64,000 bases of DNA from Rhodobacteraceae bacterium DSL-40 (GTDB lineage: Bacteria > Pseudomonadota > Alphaproteobacteria > Rhodobacterales > Rhodobacteraceae): contig QKPN01000006.1 in assembly GCA_003258405.1 (NCBI GenBank), positions 62,001 to 126,000 of the forward strand, written 5' to 3'. This document shows positions 7,144 through 23,218 of the stretch, in pieces (position 1 is the first letter of the stretch; the number at the start of each line of letters is the position of its first letter). The position numbers and the translations under genes are program-made. The notes beneath the pieces are model-generated. The model searched no databases. It saw nothing but the letters and a program-made list of their open reading frames with translations, and had not been told where the DNA came from.

Positions 7144-7896
7144 ATGTTCGGTGTGGATCTTTGGGATGCCTCGCTGGTGCCGGCGCTCGGCGTGGCGCTT
7201 GCCGCGGGGGTGTTGAGCTTCCTGTCCCCTTGTGTCCTGCCCATCGTTCCGCCCTATCTCGCCTTCATGGCCGGGGCATCCATGGACGAGATGGCGACGG
7301 GTCGCGGTGGCACGCGGCGCGCGCTTCAGGCCGCCGTCTTCTTCGTGCTTGGGCTCTCGACAGTCTTCCTCTTCCTGGGCCTCGCGGCCTCGGTTTTCGG
7401 ACGGCTGCTGCTCAGCCATCAGCGCGAGATGGCGATGCTCGCAGGTGCGGTCATCCTCATCTTCGGCCTGCATTTTCTCGGCGTGATCCGGATTCCGCTG
7501 CTTTATCGCGAGGCGCGCTTCGAGACCGCTGCAAAGGGCGGCACGGCCTTTGGCGCCTATGTGCTGGGGCTCGCATTCGCCTTTGGTTGGACGCCCTGCA
7601 TCGGCCCGGTTCTGGGCGCGATTCTCTCGCTGGCCGCGACGGAAGGCTCGGTCGAGCGGGGCATGCTGCTCATGGGATTCTACGCGGTGGGGCTTGGGCT
7701 TCCCTTCCTGCTCACGGCCATATTTCTCCAGCGCGCGCTGGGCGTGATGGCGCATCTCAAGCGTCACATGGGGGCGATCGAACGCGCCATGGGCGTGCTG
7801 CTGGTGGCCGTCGGGCTTCTCATGATGACCGGCGCCTTCAGCAGCCTTTCCTTCTGGCTGCTCGAAACCTTCCCGGCACTCGGTCAGATCGGATAG
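7144..7896 (+). CDS. ccdA: Cytochrome c biogenesis protein CcdA (DsbD transmembrane-type)
   Basis: A 250-residue integral membrane protein with about six hydrophobic segments. The two redox cysteines of the CcdA/DsbD family are visible, C30 in SFLSPCVLP and C152 in GWTPCIGP. It carries electrons from cytoplasmic thioredoxin across the inner membrane to periplasmic thiol proteins such as CcmG, whose gene lies at 21.8-22.3 kb. The start MFGVDLW follows GGAGAAGAG; a longer in-frame start at 7081 would add a non-membrane, Arg-rich leader and is rejected. It converges on the PQQ dehydrogenase operon, with a strong hairpin between them. Confidence 0.93.
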   Translation: MFGVDLWDASLVPALGVALAAGVLSFLSPCVLPIVPPYLAFMAGASMDEMATGRGGTRRALQAAVFFVLGLSTVFLFLGLAASVFGRLLLSHQREMAMLAGAVILIFGLHFLGVIRIPLLYREARFETAAKGGTAFGAYVLGLAFAFGWTPCIGPVLGAILSLAATEGSVERGMLLMGFYAVGLGLPFLLTAIFLQRALGVMAHLKRHMGAIERAMGVLLVAVGLLMMTGAFSSLSFWLLETFPALGQIG

Positions 7897-7928
7897 CCCC
7901 AGGTCGCGGACCCGGTTGACCCCCGGCT

Positions 7929-7959
7929 GGAACCGGCGGTAGCGCTGCCCGCCGGTTCC
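7929..7959 (+). terminator. Strong hairpin terminator after ccdA
   Basis: GGAACCGGCGG (7929-7939) and CCGCCGGTTCC (7949-7959) form a perfect 11-bp stem with a 9-base loop, followed by GTTTGT. It lies between the convergent ccdA and PQQ dehydrogenase genes. The T-rich side favours termination of ccdA, though the stem could act on both strands. Confidence 0.7.
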
Positions 7960-7977
7960 GTTTGTGCGCTGCGCGGC

Positions 7978-9966
7978 TTATTCCTCGGGCAGCGCGTAGA
8001 CCGCGACCTGATCGCCGACCTGATCCTTGATGATCGTGTTGCCTCCGGCGACGAAGGCCACGTACTCGCGGCCCTTGTATTCGTAGACCGCCGGGTTCGC
8101 GACGGCGGGGGCCGCGACGATGTCTTCCCAAAGCACTTCTCCGGTCTCGAGCGAATAGGCGCGGACCTTGGCATCCATCGAAGCGCCGATGAAAATCAGC
8201 CCACCCGCGGTGACCGCCGGGCCACCGATTGTTGGCGAGCCCATGCTTTCTGGCATGTAGAAACCGTATTTCTGCGATGCGCCCATCGGGACGCGCCATT
8301 TTACATCACCGGTGTGCATGTCGAGCGCAACAAGCTCGCCGTAGGGGGGCTTCCAGCAGGGCATGCCGAGCCAGTTCATCGCCACATCAAGCGACATCCC
8401 GTACGGCGCGCCGGCCTGGGGATAGAAGCCGCTCTCGTTGCCGGAGCCGCCCGCGAGCTTCTCGTATTCGTCCCGCGGGTAAAGCTTGATCTCCTGCACG
8501 ATGTGCGAGGTGTTGACGACTGCCGTCTGGCTCTCCGGGTCAAAGGCGACGCCGCCCCATTGCACGCCGCCCGAACTGTCGGGGTAGGCAAGCACGCCCG
8601 AGCCCTTCGTGGTCGGCGGCGAATACATCCCGTCGTATTCCAGGTTGTCGAAGAGGCGCGAGCACTGGCCGAAGCCGAGGAGATTGGCGAGCCACCAGAC
8701 CTCGGGCTTCTCCGCCTGATCGAGCAGCGGAGCGGGCTTGGTCGGGAAGGGCTGGGTCGGCGCATAGACCTCGCCCTCAATCCTGCCGGCCGGCACGGGG
8801 CGCTCCTCGATCGGCCAGACATCCTCGCCCGTCTCGCGATTGACCACGAACAGGAAGCCCTGCTTCGTGGACTGGATGAGCGCCGGGATCTCCTCGCCAT
8901 CGACGGTGATGTCCATGAGCGTCGGCGCTGCGTTGATGTCGTAATCCCAGATATCGTGATGCACCCACTGCCGCGACCAGACAACTTCGCCGGTCTCGAT
9001 ATCGAGCGCGGTGGTCGAGGTCGCCAGCGGGATCTCTTCGGTCCGGTTGCCACCCCAGTAGTTCGGCGAGGGTGAAGAAACCGGCAGGTAGACCAGTCCG
9101 CGCTCTTCGTCGACCGACATCGCCGTCCAGACATTGGCGGTTCCCGTCTTCGCTCGGACCGCCTCCGGCAGCGCCTGGAAGGTCCATTCAAGCGCGCCGG
9201 TTCGGGCGTTGAAAGAGAAGACCGACCCCGGCGGTGCTTCGGCGAAGGCCCAGTCCTTGCCGGCCCAGCCGAGGATCAGGTGATCGCCCACCACCGTCGG
9301 TGGCTGCAACAGCGAGAGCGGCCAGCGTGCATTCGTGGTGTTCCACTGGTTGAGATCAAGCACGCCGTTGTTGGCAAAACCGCTGCAAGGCGTGCCAGTG
9401 TCGGCATCGACCGCGAAGAGCTGCGCGTCCATCGTGCCGAGATAGACGATCTTCTGGCAGCTTTCGCCCCCGGCCGGGGCGCTCGTCTCCCAGTAGGCCA
9501 CGCCGCGGTTCTTGAGCGCCGGTTGCGTCAGCGCCTCGAGCGTCGACTCGGTGTCGAAGGTCCACTTCTCCGCACCGGTCTCGGGATCGAGCGCCACGAT
9601 CCGATAGAAGGGCGTGCCGATATAGAGTGTGTCGTTGGCAAAGATGGGCGTTGCGGACCAAACGGTTGCGGGACGTTCGCCCGATCCGTCCGAGACATCG
9701 CCGGTATGATACTCCCAGGCCTTCTCGAGCTTGCCGACATTCGAGGTGTCGATCTGATCGAGGGGCGAATATTTCTGCGCGCTGAGCTGGCCATGGAAAC
9801 TGTTCCAGACCGGCCCGTCGGGCACGAGCGGTACAGGCTCCGTTGCGGCTTCCTCCGGGGCAGGAACGGCTGCGGGAGCGCTTTCTGAGCTCGCTTCTTG
9901 CGCAAGCGAAAAAGGTGTGGCGGCAAGGCTGGCGAGGAGGGCGAGAGGGGAGACGAGACGGATCAT
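7978..9966 (-). CDS. PQQ-dependent dehydrogenase, glucose/quinate-type catalytic subunit
   Basis: A 662-residue periplasmic quinoprotein with a Sec signal peptide (MIRLVSPLALLASLAATPFSLAQ) and a beta-propeller of W-motif repeats (for example GAEKWTF, GALEWTF, GEVVWSR, GDVKWRV, GEVLWED). The start of the propeller (NSFHGQLSAQKYSPLDQI) and HHDIWDYDINAAPTLMDI match the membrane glucose/quinate/shikimate dehydrogenase family rather than the methanol dehydrogenases; the usual N-terminal membrane domain of that family is missing. A small membrane protein gene ends in an ATGA overlap with this start and probably supplies it. Oxidation of a sugar or polyol with electrons to ubiquinone is inferred; the substrate is unknown, and no PQQ synthesis genes are in the window. 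Confidence 0.88.
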   Translation of the reverse strand: MIRLVSPLALLASLAATPFSLAQEASSESAPAAVPAPEEAATEPVPLVPDGPVWNSFHGQLSAQKYSPLDQIDTSNVGKLEKAWEYHTGDVSDGSGERPATVWSATPIFANDTLYIGTPFYRIVALDPETGAEKWTFDTESTLEALTQPALKNRGVAYWETSAPAGGESCQKIVYLGTMDAQLFAVDADTGTPCSGFANNGVLDLNQWNTTNARWPLSLLQPPTVVGDHLILGWAGKDWAFAEAPPGSVFSFNARTGALEWTFQALPEAVRAKTGTANVWTAMSVDEERGLVYLPVSSPSPNYWGGNRTEEIPLATSTTALDIETGEVVWSRQWVHHDIWDYDINAAPTLMDITVDGEEIPALIQSTKQGFLFVVNRETGEDVWPIEERPVPAGRIEGEVYAPTQPFPTKPAPLLDQAEKPEVWWLANLLGFGQCSRLFDNLEYDGMYSPPTTKGSGVLAYPDSSGGVQWGGVAFDPESQTAVVNTSHIVQEIKLYPRDEYEKLAGGSGNESGFYPQAGAPYGMSLDVAMNWLGMPCWKPPYGELVALDMHTGDVKWRVPMGASQKYGFYMPESMGSPTIGGPAVTAGGLIFIGASMDAKVRAYSLETGEVLWEDIVAAPAVANPAVYEYKGREYVAFVAGGNTIIKDQVGDQVAVYALPEE

Positions 9967-10319
9967 GCCGGATACCCCCGCTTCGCAATCGAGTCGAATA
10001 GAACGAAGACAAGTGCCGCGATCATCGCACCGAGCAGCCAGGGGCTGTGCAGGAACCAGGCCGCCGCGGCGGTGCAGGCTGCGCCTATGAAGCCAAGGAA
10101 ACGGAAGAGGGTCGCCGCTTCGCCCGCGGGCTCGAAGATCATCACGAGGCCCGCGATCGCCAGCAGCCCGCAGGCGACTGCGACGAGCATCGCCCCGAAG
10201 CTGCCCGTCACACCGGTCAGCGGAACAAGATAGAGATAGAGCGAAATGCCAAGCCCCGCGAGGGCGCTCACAAGGAAAAGGACGGCGGCAGGCGTGTAGC
10301 GCGGCGGGGAGTGAGGCAT
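9963..10319 (-). CDS. Small four-helix membrane protein, likely anchor of the PQQ dehydrogenase
   Basis: A 118-residue, very hydrophobic protein with four predicted transmembrane segments (about residues 11-32, 39-61, 71-90 and 92-110). It is first in a two-gene operon, and its TGA overlaps the ATG of the PQQ dehydrogenase by four bases, which implies coupled translation. Membrane glucose and quinate dehydrogenases normally carry a five-helix N-terminal domain of about 140 residues that binds quinone; the catalytic protein downstream lacks it. The inference is that this gene encodes that domain separately. Sequence similarity to the domain cannot be proven by eye. Confidence 0.72.
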   Translation of the reverse strand: MPHSPPRYTPAAVLFLVSALAGLGISLYLYLVPLTGVTGSFGAMLVAVACGLLAIAGLVMIFEPAGEAATLFRFLGFIGAACTAAAAWFLHSPWLLGAMIAALVFVLFDSIAKRGYPA

Positions 10320-10356
10320 CGCGTGATCTCCTGAGCTTCAATGACGGCTTGGCGAA

Positions 10357-10372
10357 TTACTTGTTCAAGTAA
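10357..10372. promoter_or_regulatory. 16-bp palindrome upstream of the PQQ dehydrogenase operon
   Basis: TTACTTGTTCAAGTAA has two exact 7-bp arms around a central TT. It lies 38 bases upstream of the first ATG of the minus-strand PQQ operon (10319), where a repressor would block transcription. The size and symmetry suit a TetR-type dimer. No TetR gene is nearby, so the regulator would act from elsewhere. Confidence 0.5.
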
Positions 10373-10494
10373 CGGTCAGGGAGTGCTGCCGTTCCATCAA
10401 AACATGGCAGGGGGCCGCGCATCAACCGTGCGCGCCCGAAAGTAGGGCATTGGCCTGATCCTTGGGCACATGCTCCGTCGGAGCTCGGCCGCCG

Positions 10495-10743
10495 TCAGCG
10501 GGCGGGTGTCTCCGCGGCCTTGGCGCGCGCCTGATACCAGGCGAGCACATGAAGGCGGATCGCAGAGGCCAGGCCGCAGTCGGCGCCGCGTGCGGCATCG
10601 ATCTCGGCGGCGAGATCGTTGAGGCCGCGCCCCTCGGCGGCTGCGATTGCACGGAACGCCATCCAGAACGCCGGCTCGAGCGAAACCGAAGTGCGATGGC
10701 CGCGCAGGGTCAGGGAATGCTTCTGCGGGCGGGACGTGTGCAT
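10495..10743 (-). CDS. Ribbon-helix-helix domain protein
   Basis: An 82-residue protein whose N-terminal half (HSLTLRGHRTSVSLEPAFWMAF) has the strand-helix-helix pattern of the alphaproteobacterial RHH_4 family. These are small DNA-binding or regulatory proteins of unknown target. The frame remains open upstream, but MHTSRPQKH is the family-like start and leaves a 10-base gap after the DUF4169 gene. The pair DUF4169-RHH appears to be one operon. The function is not established. Confidence 0.78.
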   Translation of the reverse strand: MHTSRPQKHSLTLRGHRTSVSLEPAFWMAFRAIAAAEGRGLNDLAAEIDAARGADCGLASAIRLHVLAWYQARAKAAETPAR

Positions 10744-16868: not shown

Positions 16869-17768
16869 ATGGAAGCGTGGATCGCAGGCTTCGAGGGCAC
16901 GCCGGCCGCGGAGCACCTCGCGATGGCGCTCGCCCTGCTGGCCGCGGTCAGCCACGCGGTTTTCGGCGCGCTCCAGAAGGGCCGGCACGACCCCTGGCTT
17001 TCCCGCGGGGCGATCGACATCAGCTATTCGCTGATGGCGCTGCCGGTCGCGCTGCTGCTCGTGCCCTGGCCGGAGGGGCGGCAGTGGCTGATTCTCCTCG
17101 GCGCGGCGATCATCCATCTTGCCTACAAATACGCCCAGGCGCGGGCCTATGACCGGGGAGACTTCACGGTCGTCTATCCGATCGTGCGCGGCATGGGGCC
17201 GCTCGTCACGGTCGCGGCGGCGGGGGTGGTCTTCTCGGAGAGCTACTCGGCGGTGCAATGGGCGGGCGTGCTGCTCCTGTCGGGCGGGATCTTCTCGCTT
17301 TCGGCCTTCAATCTCGCGAGCGTCAGCATCGGGCGGCGCCGGCTTCTGGCCGCACTTGCCTGGGCGATGGTGACCGGGGTGCTGGTCTCGACCTACACGA
17401 CCTATGACGCCTACGGGATCCGCGAGACCCCCAACCCCTTCACCTTCCTCGCGTGGTTCTTCGTGCTAGACGGGGTGCTCTTTCCCTGGATCGCGCTGCG
17501 CCACTACGCGACCATGCCCGATCCGCCCGACCTCGGGCCGCTGTTCCGACGGGGGATCATCGGCGGGCTGGTGGCCTATGTGAGCTTCGGCTCGGTCATG
17601 ATGGCGACCCGGCTCGACAAGGTGGGGGAGGCGGCGGTCCTGCGCGAGACCTCGGTGGTCTTCGCCGCGCTGATCGGCTGGCTCTTTCTCGGCGAGCGGG
17701 TCGGGCCCTGGCGGGCGGCTCTCGTAGTTCTGATCGCGCTTGGCGCGGTAATTGTGGAATTCGGCTGA
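16869..17768 (+). CDS. EamA/DMT family transporter
   Basis: A 299-residue membrane protein with about ten hydrophobic segments arranged as two EamA repeats. Features of the family include VYPIVRGMGPLVT near the end of the first repeat, and AVLRETSVVFAALIGWLFLGE in the second. Drug/metabolite transporters of this type usually export small molecules; the substrate is unknown. It starts 4 bases after ftsY and is followed by yciB after 21 bases, an arrangement that suggests co-transcription. Confidence 0.88.
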   Translation: MEAWIAGFEGTPAAEHLAMALALLAAVSHAVFGALQKGRHDPWLSRGAIDISYSLMALPVALLLVPWPEGRQWLILLGAAIIHLAYKYAQARAYDRGDFTVVYPIVRGMGPLVTVAAAGVVFSESYSAVQWAGVLLLSGGIFSLSAFNLASVSIGRRRLLAALAWAMVTGVLVSTYTTYDAYGIRETPNPFTFLAWFFVLDGVLFPWIALRHYATMPDPPDLGPLFRRGIIGGLVAYVSFGSVMMATRLDKVGEAAVLRETSVVFAALIGWLFLGERVGPWRAALVVLIALGAVIVEFG

Positions 17769-17789
17769 AAGCCGCGGTAGGAGCCGGAC

Positions 17790-18404
17790 ATGGCTGAGCG
17801 CAAGATACATCCCCTTCTCAAGATCGCCCTCGAAGTCGGGCCGATCGCGATCTTCTTCCTGGCCTACCGGATGGCGCCGGTGCCGGACGGGCTCGATGCG
17901 ACCGAACGCCAGCTCGAGCAGATCCTGTTCTCGACCAAGGTCTTCATCCCGACGATCCTCGCGACCCTCGGGATCAGCTTCGCGCTCACCCGGAAGCTTC
18001 CGAAGATGGCGGTCATCACGGCGATCGTGGTGGTGGTGTTCGGGGGGCTCACGATCGTCCTGCATGACGATACCTTCGTGAAGATGAAGCCGACGATCCT
18101 CTACTGCATCTTCGCGGGCATCCTCGGCTTCGGGCTGCTCCGTGGGCAAAGCTATCTTCGCTATCTGATGGACGAGCTCCTGCCGATGCAGCGGGAGGGG
18201 TGGATGAAGTTCACCCGGCGCTTCGTGGTCTTCTACCTGTTTCTCGCGGTGCTGAACGAGGTGGTCTGGCGCGGGTTAGGGACGGACATGTGGGTGAATT
18301 TCCGTACGTTCGTGCTTCCGATCGCCAACTTCGGCTTCGTCATGGCCCAGCTCCCGCTCTTCCAGCGCTATTCGATCGTCCAGAAGGCCGACGAAGGGGT
18401 GTGA
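17790..18404 (+). CDS. yciB: Septation/intracellular-membrane protein YciB (IspZ family)
   Basis: A 204-residue inner-membrane protein with five or six hydrophobic segments. Family signatures include LEVGPIAIFFLAY near the N-terminus, FGGLTIVLHDDTFVKMKPTI in the middle, and NEVVWR and FPLFQRYS-like (LPLFQRYSIV) near the end. YciB is involved in cell envelope integrity and division in enterobacteria; its molecular activity is not settled. GGAGCCGGAC precedes the ATG. It is the last gene of the ftsY cluster and borders the low-GC island. Confidence 0.93.
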   Translation: MAERKIHPLLKIALEVGPIAIFFLAYRMAPVPDGLDATERQLEQILFSTKVFIPTILATLGISFALTRKLPKMAVITAIVVVVFGGLTIVLHDDTFVKMKPTILYCIFAGILGFGLLRGQSYLRYLMDELLPMQREGWMKFTRRFVVFYLFLAVLNEVVWRGLGTDMWVNFRTFVLPIANFGFVMAQLPLFQRYSIVQKADEGV

Positions 18405-18761
18405 GGGGCCGGGGTGCCCTGACCGTGAAAACGGGGGTTTTCACCGTGAAAATTTTGGTAAGTTGCTGAAATTTCGGATTAAAGTGGCTAACAAATTGTG
18501 AATGGGCGTTTTGTTGGCCTTTGAGGGCCGACATTGCGCCGGTTTTGGTTGGTCGGACCTTGGATTCGTGTGCGGCGGTGCACTGCATCCCGGACATGAA
18601 GGGCGGGAAGCGGTTGTTCGCTGCGCCCAAAACTAATGTCCGCAAGAGTGCAAACGAAGCCGTTGTGGGTTGCCATACAAGGAGCGATTAGCACGCCTGC
18701 CCAGCGCTCTGGCCCTGTGTACAGAGGAGGCGGACTGATCAACCGAACCTTGTTGACGAGG
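18405..18761. other. Non-coding left flank of the NTPase-TIR island
   Basis: No convincing gene is seen in these 357 bases. The segment begins with an A/T-rich hairpin and continues with patchy sequence of lower GC than yciB. It contains TGTCCGCAA (18637-18645), whose exact reverse complement TTGCGGACA occurs at 20248-20256 on the other side of the island gene. No tRNA, integrase or obvious long direct repeat was found by eye. Confidence 0.5.
18425..18444 (+). terminator. Hairpin after yciB
   Basis: GTGAAAAC and GTTTTCAC form an 8-bp stem around a GGGG loop, 21 bases after the yciB stop. A second GTGAAAA follows at once, then TTTTGG. The position suits a terminator for the ftsY-yciB operon, although the stem is not GC-rich. 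Confidence 0.45.
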
Positions 18762-20234
18762 TCAGAGGCTGGTGAGCTTGCCCGCGATGCGCAGAACTAT
18801 GTCGTCAATAATCGCGTCTGCCTGCGCATCGATGTCGCCACTGTAATCGAAGTGGATCGAAACGAGATCGGTAGGGATGCCAGGGAAAATCGTCTTGTCG
18901 AGAAAGACGGGGATCACCTCAGCCTCCGAAACCCTTTGGGTGAAACAGTCCCGCTCGAAAGTGGGCCAAACCTTGTCCTTGTGGTGCTGGTCAAGAATTG
19001 CGACAACCAAACGCGATTTTCGGACAAATATGTCCAAGAACTGTTGGGACCAAAGGCCGCCCAGATAATTGTCTTCATAGTTGCGGTCGTAGAACACCGA
19101 GATGTCGAGTTCCCGGAGTTTCTGGCCGATGAAGTCGGCAATGTCGCGGTTTTCACCCGCAAAGGATATTGCAATATCCCACTCGAAATCACGAGGATCA
19201 TCGCGGAAACCGCAGCGCTGGCGAAGGTCTTCCCAGTTCAGGTTCTTGATGTAGTAGAAAAGGGCTGGGTCTTCGATCGCGAAGTTTTTGGTGTCGGCGT
19301 CATAGTAAAACAATCGGGCGCAGGTCTCCTTCTGATCAAGTAGAACTCGCAACCGGTGATCCTTGACATTGTTTATGCTGCCCTTGATGTCGTGACGAGC
19401 ATTCGCGAGTTCGTTCAGGTCGACGTTCGATTGCTCCAACTCGGATACAGCCCGCAGCAGCTTGTAGTAAGGATCGTTCGTCGGACGGAAACGCCTACCG
19501 CGGCAAAATTCGCGAACCGCCGGATCGTAGTTGTGATGGAGCGTCTCCACGACTTGAGCCTTGATCGTGTCCTGTGTCCAGTTGATGTGGTGCGTCACTT
19601 CGCGAGTTTGATCGACATTCGCCGAGATGCAGATCGTTTTGCATATCTGCTGGGTGAGCCAATAGTCGCCCCTACTGTCCGTTATAATGGCTTCTTGCTC
19701 TTCGATTTTGATGTTCAGTCGAATGCTTCCGAGCTTGATCATCTCGCCGATCACGGCAGGAGTACCCGGGGCAATGCGGTGAATGCCCATGCGCTTCGCA
19801 ATGTCCGGGACCAGTTGGATGAGGTCCGATCCAACGTTGTTGATCCCAATAATGATGAGCTTTGGCAGCCCATCACGATTATCCCGTTCGGCAATCACTT
19901 TTGCCAGATTAGCAAGACGTTCTTTCGTTTCTTTGTTGAGACGGTGGAAGTCGTCAACGACGAAGGTCTCATCACCGGATTCTTCGCTAATAGCCTCGAT
20001 GATCGGGAGATCCTTGGGCTCGCGCGGCGTCAAAAGTCTTGGTGCGTTCTCAGGGAAGATTTCCGCAAGCGCTTTCTTGACGGTTGTAGTCTTACCTGTG
20101 CCTGATTGACCTTCGACGACGACCGGCTTTCCTTTGCGTCGCAAATCGACGAGAAGTGCTGTGAAGTTAGGGGGCTTCACGAATGTGAATTCAGGCACGC
20201 CCTCCGTAACGAAAACATCTTCCAAATATGCCAT
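18762..20234 (-). CDS. NTPase-TIR domain protein (putative defence effector)
   Basis: A 490-residue two-domain protein. The N-terminal half is a P-loop ATPase of the AAA/STAND type: Walker A GQSGTGKT (42-49), Walker B FVVDD (91-95), a sensor-1-like LIIIGINN (126-133), and a helical region to about residue 345. The C-terminal part (about 350-490) is a TIR domain: WDIAISFAGENRD opens it, SRLVVAILD forms a core strand, and E427 in WPTFERD sits where NADase TIR domains carry the catalytic glutamate. The order, sensor ATPase first and TIR last, suggests ATP-dependent assembly that activates NAD cleavage or signalling. The gene is alone in a low-GC island (hand counts of four 60-base lines give 25-35 GC, against 47 in a flanking line). 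A defence role is inferred; I do not recognise a named system. Confidence 0.8.
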   Translation of the reverse strand: MAYLEDVFVTEGVPEFTFVKPPNFTALLVDLRRKGKPVVVEGQSGTGKTTTVKKALAEIFPENAPRLLTPREPKDLPIIEAISEESGDETFVVDDFHRLNKETKERLANLAKVIAERDNRDGLPKLIIIGINNVGSDLIQLVPDIAKRMGIHRIAPGTPAVIGEMIKLGSIRLNIKIEEQEAIITDSRGDYWLTQQICKTICISANVDQTREVTHHINWTQDTIKAQVVETLHHNYDPAVREFCRGRRFRPTNDPYYKLLRAVSELEQSNVDLNELANARHDIKGSINNVKDHRLRVLLDQKETCARLFYYDADTKNFAIEDPALFYYIKNLNWEDLRQRCGFRDDPRDFEWDIAISFAGENRDIADFIGQKLRELDISVFYDRNYEDNYLGGLWSQQFLDIFVRKSRLVVAILDQHHKDKVWPTFERDCFTQRVSEAEVIPVFLDKTIFPGIPTDLVSIHFDYSGDIDAQADAIIDDIVLRIAGKLTSL

Positions 20235-20598
20235 TTGAGTCCCGAAATTGCGGACACTTTCGTTTTCCGATCACCGAAGGTGGCGCAATTACGTTTTTTC
20301 TTCAAGAGCGTCTGCACGGCAGATGGACAAATCGAGCGCTGTATGGTGGGCACCGCACATACCGCTGGTCATCTTCGAGCAAGGCGGATCGCTTATCCGC
20401 GATGGTTAACCACTATCGGTTGGAAGCGGCCATCCGACGAATGCAGAACGAACGACAGCTTAGGGCCGAAGGTAGTCGTTTGGTTCGGCAGATCAGAGGA
20501 AGGGCCGCAGGCCCGGCGGCGCTGCGCGCCTTGTTCGGGGCCGGGGGCCGAGTTGTTTCGCAGTAGGTTAGGCGGCAGTTGTGCATGGACGATCCGCC
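20235..20598. other. Non-coding right flank (promoter side) of the NTPase-TIR island
   Basis: These 364 bases hold the upstream region of the NTPase-TIR gene. No gene was recognised. The first 60 bases include TTGCGGACA (20248-20256) and a run TTTTTTCTT, suitable for a minus-strand promoter. The rest becomes steadily GC-richer and ends in degenerate palindromic GC-rich sequence near 20505-20545 next to the M24 gene's stop. This looks like an old insertion boundary without preserved ends. Confidence 0.45.
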
Positions 20599-21774
20599 CT
20601 ACCGCCGGATCAGGTCCAGCGGGGCCTGCGAGAGGGGTTCGGCGCCGGTTTCCGTGACGAGGGAGGTGCGGGCGAGGGTCATCGCGAGGCCGTTGGCCTC
20701 GTCGAAGAGGATCATGTGGATGAAGAAGGTGTTGCCGGGGCGGAGGATGTAGCTCTGGCCCTCGTAGAACATCGGCCAGTCCATCCAGTTCGGCGCGAAG
20801 GTGGTGCCCAGGGAATAGCCGCAGGCGTTGAGCTTGTTGGCGCCCTGGCCGCGGGCCTCCATCACGGCGGCATGGGCCTCGAAGACGGCGCGGGCGGGCT
20901 CGCCGGGGCGCAGCGCGGCCTCGGCGGCCAGCAGCGCCTCCTCGCAGGCGGCGTGCATCGCGGCGACGCGCGGGTCGAGCCGGCCGATGACGACCGTGCG
21001 CATGAGTGCTGCGTGGTAGTGGCGCCAGGCGGCGGCGAATTCCAGCGTGAGGAGGTCGTCGGGATCGAGCGTGCGGCGGCCGGTGAAGTAGCGGCACATG
21101 AGCGCGCCGGGGCCCGAGCCGATGATCTGCTCGTTGGCCGGGTCGTCGCCGCCGCCGCGGTAGATCGCGCCCTGAAGCTCGGCGAGGATGTCGCCCTCGT
21201 AGGCGCCGGGGCGCGTGGCTGCGGTCGCGGCGGCGAGGGCCTCGTCGGCGAGGGCGGCGGCGCGGCGGACATGGGCGATCTCGGCGGGGCTCTTCACGGC
21301 GCGCAGGCGCGTGACGAGGAGCGAGGCGTCCTCGAGGCTGCCGAAGCCTTCGAGGGCGTCGGTGAGGCGGCGGCCCTTGGCGGCGGTGAGCCCGTAGGCC
21401 TCCCACTCGACGCCGAGGCGGCGGCCGGAGAGGCCGAGCTCGGCGAGGATGCCGCGGAGCTCGCGCTCCGGGGCGGCATGTTCGCCATCGGTCCAGATGC
21501 GGATGTCGCTCACGCGCGAGGTGAAGCGGGCCTGGAGGCGGTCGGCGGAGCGGGTGAGCAGCACGAGGCGGCCGTCGCCGGTGAGCACCATGGCCTGGAA
21601 ATGCACGTAGCCGAAGGTGTCGTAGCCGGTCAGCCAGTACATGCTTTCCTGGCGGAAGAGCAGGAGCGCGTCGAGCCCCGCGCGCTCCATCTCGGCGAGC
21701 ACGGCCTGCTGGCGGGCGCGGAACTCGGGCTCGTCGAAGTGGAGGTTGCGGGGCGGCGTGCTATCCTGCGGCAT
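20599..21774 (-). CDS. M24-fold ('pita-bread') hydrolase lacking metal ligands
   Basis: A 391-residue creatinase/aminopeptidase-P-like protein: an N-terminal creatinase domain (about 1-150) and a C-terminal M24 domain (about 160-391). Compared by eye with methionine aminopeptidase, all five metal ligands are replaced: E245 and A256 for the two Asp, Y320 for His, H353 for Glu, and A368 for the last Glu. Metal-free relatives such as creatinase and ectoine hydrolase exist, so it may be a C-N hydrolase rather than a peptidase. It overlaps the end of ccmG by 14 bases, so it is probably translated as the last gene of the ccm operon. The substrate is unknown. Confidence 0.82.
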   Translation of the reverse strand: MPQDSTPPRNLHFDEPEFRARQQAVLAEMERAGLDALLLFRQESMYWLTGYDTFGYVHFQAMVLTGDGRLVLLTRSADRLQARFTSRVSDIRIWTDGEHAAPERELRGILAELGLSGRRLGVEWEAYGLTAAKGRRLTDALEGFGSLEDASLLVTRLRAVKSPAEIAHVRRAAALADEALAAATAATRPGAYEGDILAELQGAIYRGGGDDPANEQIIGSGPGALMCRYFTGRRTLDPDDLLTLEFAAAWRHYHAALMRTVVIGRLDPRVAAMHAACEEALLAAEAALRPGEPARAVFEAHAAVMEARGQGANKLNACGYSLGTTFAPNWMDWPMFYEGQSYILRPGNTFFIHMILFDEANGLAMTLARTSLVTETGAEPLSQAPLDLIRR

Positions 21775-22303
21775 CGATCACCGGCTTCAGGCGTTTCTCG
21801 ATGACCTCGCGGGTGAGCGGGCCGGGGTGGCGGAAGAGGATCTTGCCGCCCGGGCCGACGACGAAGGTTTCCGGCACGCCGTAGATGCCCCAGTCGATGC
21901 CGGTGCGGCCCGAGGCGTCCTCGCCGACCATGGCGTAGGGGTTGCCGAGCTCGGCGAGGAAGGCGGCGGCCTTCTCGGGGCTGTCCTTGTAGTTGATGCC
22001 GATGACGGGGCGCTCGGGGGTGCCGAGCTCCATCAGCACCGGGTGTTCGGCGCGGCAGGGCGCGCACCAGCTTGCCCAGAAGTTCACGAGCTTGATGCCG
22101 GGGCCGGTGAGGTCGGCGTCCGTGGGCGTGGGGCTGCCGGGAAATTCGGAGACATAGGCGAGCGGCGGGGTGGTCTTGCCGATGAGCGCGGAGGGGAGCG
22201 CGTTCGGGTCCTCGCGCTGGAGGCCGAACCAGGCGGCGACCGCGAAGGCGATGAAGAGGAGCGGCGGCAGCGCGATCAGCGGGTTGAAGCGACGCTCAGC
22301 CAC
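21761..22303 (-). CDS. ccmG: Thiol:disulfide interchange protein CcmG/DsbE
   Basis: A 180-residue membrane-anchored periplasmic thioredoxin that reduces apocytochrome c haem-binding cysteines during cytochrome c maturation. One N-terminal membrane helix (about 8-26) precedes a thioredoxin domain with the WCAPC active site (NFWASWCAPCRAEHP) and the CcmG-type GVPETFVV cis-Pro loop. The start is a GTG that overlaps the ccmD stop by 8 bases (GTGGCTGA); no ATG is well placed. It is in the order ccmC-ccmD-ccmG, typical of Alphaproteobacteria. Confidence 0.93.
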   Translation of the reverse strand: MAERRFNPLIALPPLLFIAFAVAAWFGLQREDPNALPSALIGKTTPPLAYVSEFPGSPTPTDADLTGPGIKLVNFWASWCAPCRAEHPVLMELGTPERPVIGINYKDSPEKAAAFLAELGNPYAMVGEDASGRTGIDWGIYGVPETFVVGPGGKILFRHPGPLTREVIEKRLKPVIDAAG

Positions 22304-22460
22304 GGCTGCGCCCCCGGATCTCGGCCTCGGCGCGCTCGAGCGCGCGGCGGACGCGGGCGCTGCGCCAGAGCGAGACGGCGACGAGGGCGGCGAGGAGGGC
22401 GATCGTCGCGCCATAGGCGCCGAGGACGGTTCCGGCGTAGCGTCCGAGGTCGGGCATCAT
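22296..22460 (-). CDS. ccmD: Haem exporter protein CcmD
   Basis: A 54-residue single-pass membrane protein (MMPDLGRYAG, hydrophobic helix about 10-32, then a charged tail of Arg/Glu). Size, topology and location between ccmC and ccmG identify it as CcmD, which helps release holo-CcmE from the CcmABC complex. It overlaps ccmC by four bases at its start and ccmG by eight bases at its end, so all three are translationally coupled. Two adjacent ATG codons (22460 and 22457) are possible starts. Confidence 0.87.
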   Translation of the reverse strand: MMPDLGRYAGTVLGAYGATIALLAALVAVSLWRSARVRRALERAEAEIRGRSRG

Positions 22461-23218
22461 GCCTTGTGGGCCTCCATGGGGCGGGGGGCGGCCTGCTGGG
22501 CCTGCATCTGTTCGATGGCGCGCAGCCGGCGGGCGCGGATTTCGGTGCGGGTGCGCAGGAGCACGAGGGTGATGAAGAGCAGCACGAAGCCCGCGATGCA
22601 GAGGAGCAGCGGCCAGTAGAAGGCGTTGTCGACGTTTTCGCGCTGGTCCATCGAGAGCGACGGGCCCTGGTGCAGCCCCTGCGACCAGAAGAAGACGGCG
22701 TAGCGCGAGAGGACGGCGAAGACGGAGCCGACGAGGCAGAGGATCGCGGTGAGGTCCGCGGCCTTTTCCGGGTCGTCGATGGCGGACCAGAGCGCGATGT
22801 AGCCGAGGTAGAAGACGAAGAGGATGAAGAACGAGGTGAGGCGCGGGTCCCAGGCCCACCAGGTGCCCCACATCGGTTCGCCCCAGATCGCGCCGGTGAA
22901 GAGCGTGATGAGCGTCATCACCGCACCGATGGGCGCGGCGGCACGGGCGGCTAGGGCTGAGACGTGGTGGCGGCGGATGAACCAGATCATCGAGGTCACC
23001 AGCATCATGAACCAGGCGTTGATGGCCATGAGCGCCGCGGGGACGTGGATGAAGAGGATCTTCACCGTGGCACCCTGCTGGTAGTCGTCCGGGGTGCCGA
23101 AGAAGCCCCAGCCGAGCCCGGCTGCGAGGCAGAGGACCGTGAGCCCCGAGAACGCGGGCAGGAGCGCCCCGGAGAGGCGCATGAACTGCACGGGATTGGC
23201 GAATTTCCAGATCGACAT
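22457..23218 (-). CDS. ccmC: Haem ABC transporter permease CcmC
   Basis: A 253-residue membrane protein with six hydrophobic segments. The tryptophan-rich WWD haem-handling motif is seen as GTWWAWDPRLTS, with flanking histidines in FIHVPAA and in the later periplasmic loop (SQGLHQGPSLS). CcmC loads haem onto CcmE. Its start MSIWKFANP is typical. It lies downstream of ccmA and ccmB on the same strand but is separated from ccmB by a lipoprotein gene. Confidence 0.95.
   Translation of the reverse strand: MSIWKFANPVQFMRLSGALLPAFSGLTVLCLAAGLGWGFFGTPDDYQQGATVKILFIHVPAALMAINAWFMMLVTSMIWFIRRHHVSALAARAAAPIGAVMTLITLFTGAIWGEPMWGTWWAWDPRLTSFFILFVFYLGYIALWSAIDDPEKAADLTAILCLVGSVFAVLSRYAVFFWSQGLHQGPSLSMDQRENVDNAFYWPLLLCIAGFVLLFITLVLLRTRTEIRARRLRAIEQMQAQQAAPRPMEAHKA

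What the first reader, a model, noticed from the sequence alone, without database searches (positions are those of the whole stretch)
18405..20598. A low-GC island carrying a lone NTPase-TIR protein
The protein combines an N-terminal Walker A/B NTPase (G42-T49, FVVDD 91-95) with a C-terminal TIR domain (E427 as the likely NADase glutamate). Most TIR-STAND proteins have TIR first, so the order here is reversed. The gene sits alone between housekeeping genes, and sampled 60-base lines give 25-35 GC against 47 in a flank, so it looks acquired. A role in phage defence by NAD depletion is inferred.
Basis: partly seen in the sequence, partly recalled or inferred. Interest (0 to 1): 0.75.

Follow-up and report, generated by a model that had tools for sequence, protein, structure and literature searches.

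The report
Mobile AAA+ ATPase–TIR defence candidate
A lone, horizontally acquired bacterial gene encodes an ATP-driven switch fused to a TIR domain of the NAD-cutting kind; its relatives ride on plasmids and in prophages, so it is probably a compact anti-phage suicide system of a layout we did not find described.

Summary
The gene (18762-20234, minus strand, 490 aa) encodes a P-loop NTPase (residues 1-345) followed by a TIR domain (about 350-490). Key Walker residues and E427 are identical in 27 aligned sequences. Gene GC is 0.523 against 0.661 elsewhere in the window. The stretch 18371-20602 has another gene in its place in one same-genus genome. The closest relatives are in Hyphomicrobiales (88%, 84%) and on a Pantoea plasmid (71%); the same-genus homologue is only about 33% identical: horizontal acquisition. 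All 16 viral-contig copies found keep the layout; in P2-type prophages, two E. coli genomes included, the gene sits between tail gene S and baseplate gene V. On three plasmids ThsB-like TIR genes lie within 4 kb. 'Reversed TIR-STAND' is not supported: the NTPase looks AAA+ of the ORC/Cdc6-RFC-RuvB type, without sensor repeats. PADLOC's candidate PDC-S59 is a related NTPase without TIR. Best reading: a single-gene, ATPase-gated TIR NADase that aborts phage infection. Activity and trigger are untested.

The parts
18762..20234 (-). AAA+ NTPase-TIR gene, 490 aa (stop codon included)
   Evidence: ORF; start MAYLEDVF shared with close relatives; Pfam TIR_2 above cut-off
19200..20234 (-). NTPase module, residues 1-345 (AAA+ core, lid, winged-helix-like end)
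   Evidence: model pLDDT 91.8; Foldseek; profile match to RuvB
20088..20111 (-). Walker A, residues G42-T49
   Evidence: G42, G47, K48 in 27 of 27 sequences, position 49 T in 25 and S in 2; partly selected for, since the viral-contig scans used a P-loop pattern
19950..19964 (-). Walker B, FVVDD residues 91-95
   Evidence: D94 and D95 in 27 of 27
19839..19847 (-). Sensor-1-like GIN, residues 130-132
   Evidence: G130 and I131 27 of 27; N132 24 of 27, P in 3; role inferred from position
19791..19793 (-). R148, candidate arginine finger
   Evidence: 27 of 27; role inferred
19245..19472 (-). winged-helix-like region, about residues 255-330
   Evidence: secondary structure of the models; assignment is inference, not searched on its own
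18765..19187 (-). TIR domain, about residues 350-490
   Evidence: TIR_2 in 18 of 18 members scanned; profile best matches AbTIR
18954..18956 (-). E427, putative NADase glutamate
   Evidence: 27 of 27; aligned with TcpB and AbTIR
18371..20602 (.). stretch with no DNA match in same-genus genome G005, which has an inositol monophosphatase gene in its place
   Evidence: low GC

Best explanation
It is a single-gene, mobile anti-phage system. The AAA+ module (residues 1-345) binds ATP and, on an infection signal, assembles or rearranges through contacts between subunits that use R148. This brings C-terminal TIR domains together, which cleave NAD+ with E427 and stop the infected cell before phage release. 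Shown here: architecture, motif conservation, horizontal spread as one gene, and residence on plasmids and in prophage cargo slots. Inferred: ATP-driven oligomerisation, NAD cleavage, abortive infection, and the trigger (a phage DNA structure or protein; unknown).
For: E427, W423, K48, D94, D95 and R148 are identical in 27 of 27 sequences (the window's and 26 relatives), down to about 27% overall identity. The same NTPase-TIR order is in 16 of 16 viral-contig loci. NTPase and TIR diverge together (Pearson r 0.91 over 351 non-independent pairs), so they travel as one unit. The gene tree puts the window gene with Ciceribacter, Aquamicrobium, a Pantoea plasmid and a phage-like contig at 100/100 support, apart from the same-genus copy. 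DNA shared with L002 is nearly the whole ORF plus 15 bases upstream. In two annotated E. coli P2-type prophages it is the only gene between S and V (L024 alike), where P2 itself carries nonessential orf30. On three of four annotated plasmids ThsB-like TIR genes lie 0.4-3.9 kb away and phospholipase or caspase effector genes 0.6-6.8 kb away. All 18 members scanned match PADLOC candidate PDC-S59. The best solved TIR relative is the NAD+ hydrolase AbTIR. No constant partner gene was seen, so the TIR itself is probably the effector.
Against: No phage challenge or NAD assay of any member was found. PDC-S59 is itself only a candidate. No record of 50,697 in the phage collection holds a full-length copy; the one match covers the TIR part only, so the phage link rests on predicted viral contigs and prophages. 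Two of 14 viral-contig loci whose neighbours I tested showed no structural phage gene among two proteins each. On the fourth annotated plasmid (Acetobacter) no TIR or defence gene is annotated nearby. In its own chromosome it is not in a defence island (10 neighbours). The viral-contig and genome scans seek peptide patterns, one of them the P-loop, so Walker A conservation is partly built in. Sensor-1 N132 is P in 3 of 27. TIR domains can also scaffold or signal without depleting NAD.
Confidence: 0.65

Rival explanations
1. The TIR makes a nucleotide signal (a cyclic ADP-ribose type) that switches on a separate effector, as in Thoeris, so the gene is one half of a dispersed system.
For: ThsB-like TIR genes and phospholipase or caspase effector genes lie nearby on the Pantoea, Curtobacterium and Gloeothece plasmids (the Curtobacterium ThsB match is weak, E 9.5e-8).
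Against: In the window, in G012 and G472 (few neighbours tested) and in the P2 slot no such neighbour was seen; there it is a single-gene cargo.
Confidence: 0.13
2. It is a TIR-STAND (NLR-like) protein with the domain order reversed.
For: Weak matches to nSTAND_NTPase5 (13 of 18 members), nSTAND3 (10 of 18) and NACHT (4 of 18); one NLR-named hit at rank 22 in the viral structure library.
Against: For the window protein all NTPase matches, STAND or AAA, are below Pfam cut-offs; AAA_22 and AAA_16 match 18 of 18; the 50 listed PDB fold matches in each of two searches are AAA+; sensor 1 is mostly Asn rather than the Arg that I recall for STAND; no residues for repeats follow the TIR.
Confidence: 0.1
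3. The protein serves plasmid or prophage competition (exclusion of other mobile elements) rather than host defence against lytic phages.
For: Residence on plasmids and in prophages.
Against: Lone chromosomal copies with housekeeping genes as the neighbours tested; the two roles overlap mechanistically.
Confidence: 0.08
4. It is a housekeeping or regulatory AAA+ protein.
For: It lies between housekeeping genes in this genome.
Against: Found in 2 of 60 relatives besides its own genome and in 1 of 247 others in a family sample; low GC; none of seven same-genus stretches beside yciB holds it.
Confidence: 0.03

Closest known systems
PADLOC PDC-S59 (candidate defence protein)
   Same: Related NTPase: 18 of 18 members match, best E 6.9e-21; also found as single chromosomal genes beside housekeeping genes.
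   Different: The five proteins matching most of the profile that I read (L015/L043, L042, L044-L046) are about 340-460 aa and end with the NTPase part, with no room for a TIR; the window protein matches only positions 137-401 of 428.
TIR-NLR of P4 satellites (Rousset et al. 2022, PMC9122126; passages read)
   Same: Single gene; TIR effector coupled to an ATPase switch; carried by a P2/P4-type element; anti-phage activity tested there.
   Different: There TIR stands with a central STAND NTPase and C-terminal TPRs; here AAA+ first, TIR last, no repeats. Their P2 hotspot is next to cos, not S-V.
AbTIR and TcpB TIR domains
   Same: Among the closest solved TIR relatives by sequence; same W-x3-E.
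   Different: The matched solved chains are 137-184 residues, with no ATPase in them; full proteins not examined.
ORC/Cdc6, RFC, RuvB AAA+ ATPases
   Same: Best fold and profile matches of the NTPase.
   Different: Replication and recombination machines; 10-21% identity in the listed fold matches; no TIR.
Thoeris ThsB
   Same: TIR protein of phage defence; ThsB-like genes lie nearby on three plasmids.
   Different: Works with a partner effector; the 10 window neighbours tested hold none.

Membership tests
TIR domain | Pfam TIR_2 above gathering score | tested here: met
   36.6 bits against 28; TIR_2 in 18 of 18 at E <= 0.01
TIR NADase | catalytic glutamate in the W-x3-E position | tested here: met
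   E427 27 of 27; aligned to TcpB and AbTIR; that this Glu is catalytic in those is recalled
TIR NADase | NAD+ cleavage | not testable with these tools
   needs an enzyme assay
AAA+ ATPase (ORC/Cdc6-RFC-RuvB type) | Walker A and B, sensor 1, conserved Arg after sensor 1 | tested here: met
   K48, D94, D95, R148 27 of 27; N132 24 of 27; roles of N132 and R148 inferred
AAA+ ATPase (ORC/Cdc6-RFC-RuvB type) | AAA+ fold | tested here: met
   Foldseek best E 5e-9 and 1e-8, the 50 listed hits in each of two searches; TM mostly 0.3-0.5, so domain packing differs; no Pfam AAA model above cut-off for the window protein
AAA+ ATPase (ORC/Cdc6-RFC-RuvB type) | ring or filament assembly | not testable with these tools
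   needs biochemistry or a solved assembly
TIR-STAND / TIR-NLR | TIR at the N terminus | tested here: not met
   TIR_2 at 354-465 of 490
TIR-STAND / TIR-NLR | STAND NTPase | tested here: inconclusive
   nSTAND models below cut-off, matched weakly by 10-13 of 18; fold points to AAA+
TIR-STAND / TIR-NLR | C-terminal sensor repeats | tested here: not met
   the protein ends about 25 residues after the TIR_2 match
PDC-S59 | match over the whole profile, no effector fused | tested here: not met
   positions 137-401 of 428 only, and a TIR is fused
Thoeris | effector and ThsB genes together | tested here: not met
   10 window neighbours scanned are housekeeping or unmatched
Anti-phage system | patchy spread on mobile elements | tested here: met
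Anti-phage system | protection from phage | not testable with these tools
   needs plaque assays

The most novel reading that the evidence does not exclude
A replication-initiator or clamp-loader-like AAA+ ATPase with a winged-helix end has been turned into an immune sensor: it loads onto a DNA structure or replication intermediate made by invading phage, forms a ring, and the ring itself clusters TIR domains to destroy NAD. This would be an immune receptor built from the clamp-loader branch of AAA+ rather than from STAND, with no separate sensor repeats.
Probability: 0.28. Interest if true: 0.78.

Novelty: new variant of a known kind. Interest (0 to 1): 0.52.

Why it matters
ATP-gated TIR enzymes link bacterial anti-phage defence with plant and animal innate immunity. 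The single-gene TIR example in the papers I looked into is a STAND protein with C-terminal sensor repeats (TIR-NLR; PMC9122126, passages). This family would be a minimal version: one protein of about 490 residues, an AAA+ switch of the ORC/RFC/RuvB type, TIR at the other end, no repeats. It has spread as a single gene through proteobacteria, an actinobacterium and a cyanobacterium and sits in a P2 prophage cargo slot, so it can be tested directly in E. coli. A TIR-less sister NTPase (PDC-S59) offers a natural comparison of what the ATPase does alone.

Tried and rejected
Housekeeping gene: rejected on distribution and synteny. STAND class: not supported by fold or profile, though the profile search also brought guanylate kinases, dynein and FtsE as weak P-loop matches. 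Effector swapping on the same NTPase: searched with NTPase-only profiles and with the PDC-S59 profile; the close relatives carried the TIR, and the relatives without it were the more distant PDC-S59 proteins, which end with the NTPase part by length and by eye; I did not scan those for other domains. The P2 fun(Z) locus as the cargo slot was my first guess; reading the P2 record corrected it: the slot is S-V, the place of orf30, and fun(Z) lies elsewhere. Insertion scars: the only two GGGGCCGGGG in the window lie at 18405 and 20537, near the two borders, but 16 of 100 shuffles also give at least two matches, and none of the seven same-genus stretches fetched has that word at the yciB end; not accepted as a target duplication. 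A palindrome at 18425-18444 has one other place in the genome; no meaning found. Rfam: no match in 17000-22500. Promoter and terminator scans were no better than shuffles. The second viral-contig scan, with the full-length profile, returned the same 16 contigs. The surroundings of the G010 copy (L063) were not resolved.

Rows dropped before the 27-sequence counts: L018 (same contig as L006), L031 (same protein as L024), the second E. coli copy (L040, same protein accession as L039), the TIR-only matches H6, H7 and H8, and the TIR-less PDC-S59 proteins (L015/L043, L042, L044-L046).

Papers: the statement that I found no report of this architecture rests on the ten searches and on passages (not whole texts) of PMC9122126, PMC8195603, PMC7824862, PMC10952713 and PMC12799240; other papers were seen as search listings only. 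The library lacks most subscription papers and bioRxiv.

Full report
What is there. The ORF at 18762-20234 (minus strand) encodes 490 aa. Residues 354-465 match TIR_2 above Pfam's cut-off; the N-terminal half matches AAA_22, nSTAND_NTPase5, AAA_16 and nSTAND3 only below their cut-offs. An AlphaFold2 model from 18 sequences has mean pLDDT 85.2 for the whole protein and 91.8 for residues 1-345 alone. The one stretch under pLDDT 50 is 387-394, inside the TIR domain.

Foreign origin. Gene GC is 0.523; equal-length windows outside the island average 0.661 with a minimum of 0.578 (5,887 overlapping windows). In the six relatives measured (of 26 aligned) the gene is also poorer in GC than its flanks. 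DNA similarity to the Ciceribacter homologue covers the ORF but for its last 13 bases, plus 15 bases upstream; that to the Aquamicrobium homologue starts 2 bases upstream; the two homologues share 90 bases upstream with each other. Around the slot I fetched seven same-genus stretches and none holds the gene beside yciB: G005 has yciB, an inositol monophosphatase gene and the M24 peptidase gene; in G009 and G007 yciB is followed by the dsbE-like/ccm region with neither gene between; in G002, G003, G006 and G010 only the yciB side matched. The window stretch with no counterpart in G005 is 18371-20602.

Distribution. Relatives: 2 of 60 besides its own genome. Family sample: 1 of 247 others at E <= 1e-15. 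Class sample: 1 of 288 others at E <= 1e-8, a TIR-less PDC-S59 type (read). A phylum sample of 398 searched with the PDC-S59 profile gave 7 with a match: the window genome, one further NTPase-TIR (G472) and five without TIR. E. coli: 2 of 5,426 genomes by DNA similarity to one P2-prophage copy, a lower bound. Plasmids: 7 of 72,556 records, 5 of them covering at least 80% of the protein. Phage records: 1 of 50,697, TIR part only. Viral contigs: 16, all full NTPase-TIR proteins (the same 16). Named genomes: two at 88% and 84% in a scan that finds close relatives only, both Hyphomicrobiales. The contig scans look for peptide patterns, among them the P-loop, so conservation of Walker A is partly built in; that of D94, D95, R148 and E427 less so (one search used the Walker B motif but found no new contig).

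Tree. The window gene, Ciceribacter, Aquamicrobium, a Pantoea plasmid and viral contig L016 form one group with 100/100 support. The same-genus copy (G010) lies in another group with viral contigs and the Acetobacter and Azospirillum plasmids. Long branches, L029 above all, make deep forks unsure, but the 88% versus about 33% contrast does not depend on them.

Contexts. Of 15 viral contigs with distinct proteins I tested neighbours of 14 by PHROGs (not L025; one to eight proteins each): 12 had structural, packaging or lysis proteins (L006, L016, L017, L019, L020, L022, L023, L024, L026, L027, L028, L030; for L006 the tail match covers part of a long protein), and L021 and L029 had none among two proteins each. 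In L024 and L026 the left neighbour is a tail-completion protein; in L024 baseplate proteins follow directly, in L026 a baseplate protein follows after an ORF on the other strand without a match. Two E. coli prophages show the same order with annotation: virion morphogenesis (S), this gene, V, gpW/gp25, J, I (letters by comparison with P2). In P2 the S-V gap holds orf30, marked nonessential. On plasmids, ThsB-like TIR genes lie 0.4 kb (Pantoea), 1.6 kb (Curtobacterium, weak match) and 3.8 kb (Gloeothece) away, phospholipase effectors 1.1 and 6.7 kb away (Pantoea, Gloeothece) and a caspase gene 0.6 kb away (Curtobacterium); in Acetobacter integrase genes lie on both sides and no TIR or defence gene is annotated nearby; the Azospirillum record has no annotation. 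Lone chromosomal copies sit next to lepA in G012 and between a trypsin/PDZ protease gene and a methylmalonyl-CoA mutase gene in G472.

What the NTPase is. Two Foldseek searches of the PDB list ORC/Cdc6, RFC-type clamp loaders and RuvB only among the 50 shown (of 1,672 and 1,820 matches). The profile of 18 NTPase rows matches RuvB over 34-209 with E about 2e-5; other weak matches are dynein, guanylate kinase, FtsE and, at the P-loop, VchTnsC. TM-scores are modest (mostly 0.3-0.5), so the class is better supported than the exact arrangement. Against this, nSTAND models match 10-13 of 18 members weakly, and one NLR-named viral model appears at rank 22. The motif set is Walker A K48, Walker B D94-D95, sensor-1-like N132 (24 of 27) and R148. 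I read it as AAA+.

What the TIR is. The profile's best solved relatives are AbTIR (NAD+ hydrolase) and the plant RPS4 and Roq1 TIRs; the conserved W and E align with AbTIR and RPS4 in the alignments shown. E427 is present in 27 of 27, the window's own sequence included. NAD cleavage is inferred.

How it probably works. Shown: one conserved polypeptide with an intact ATPase motif set and an intact TIR motif, moving as a unit (identity of the two halves correlates, r 0.91). Inferred: infection triggers ATP-dependent assembly, the TIRs cluster and cleave NAD, and the cell stops. The lack of repeats, the lack of a constant partner and the winged-helix-like end suggest that the AAA+ module itself does the sensing, perhaps of phage DNA structures.

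Relation to the known. PDC-S59 of PADLOC is a related NTPase without TIR; it is a candidate, and no paper in the library holds the name. TIR-NLR (PMC9122126, passages) works alike but has another order and another NTPase class. A review table (PMC10952713, passages) lists for a TIR family Thoeris, Pycsar, CBASS type III, Retron-TIR, TIR-NLR and SPARTA, none with this layout as far as the passages show. I therefore call it a new variant of a known kind. Public annotation already names members 'TIR domain-containing protein' or 'AAA family ATPase'.

Noticed in passing
L064 (G012) 7181-10496; L046 (G616) 276-2983: In two genomes of the window's family the gene just downstream of lepA is an NTPase-TIR in one and a TIR-less PDC-S59-type NTPase in the other, which suggests that the lepA flank is a recurrent cargo slot for these NTPases.
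   Followed up: partly
L042 1444-2799: A PDC-S59-type lone NTPase lies between a VTT-domain (DedA-like) gene and rmuC, again a single gene between housekeeping genes.
   Followed up: no
L007 11844-17912 (Pantoea plasmid pNBBC01-2): Three ThsB-like TIR genes, a phospholipase effector with an extra N-terminal part of about 220 aa, and a gene annotated as macro-domain protein lie directly beside the NTPase-TIR gene.
   Followed up: partly
window 18405-18414 and 20537-20546: GGGGCCGGGG occurs only twice in the 64 kb, near the two borders of the low-GC island and in the same orientation; 16 of 100 shuffles give at least two copies.
   Followed up: yes
window 18425-18444: Perfect palindrome GTGAAAACNNNNGTTTTCAC just beyond yciB, followed by a second CGTGAAAA; one other place in the genome has it.
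   Followed up: partly
L028 7758-9464: This viral-contig NTPase-TIR reading frame starts some 80 residues further upstream than the family start, with a stretch that looks like a helix-turn-helix by eye.
   Followed up: no
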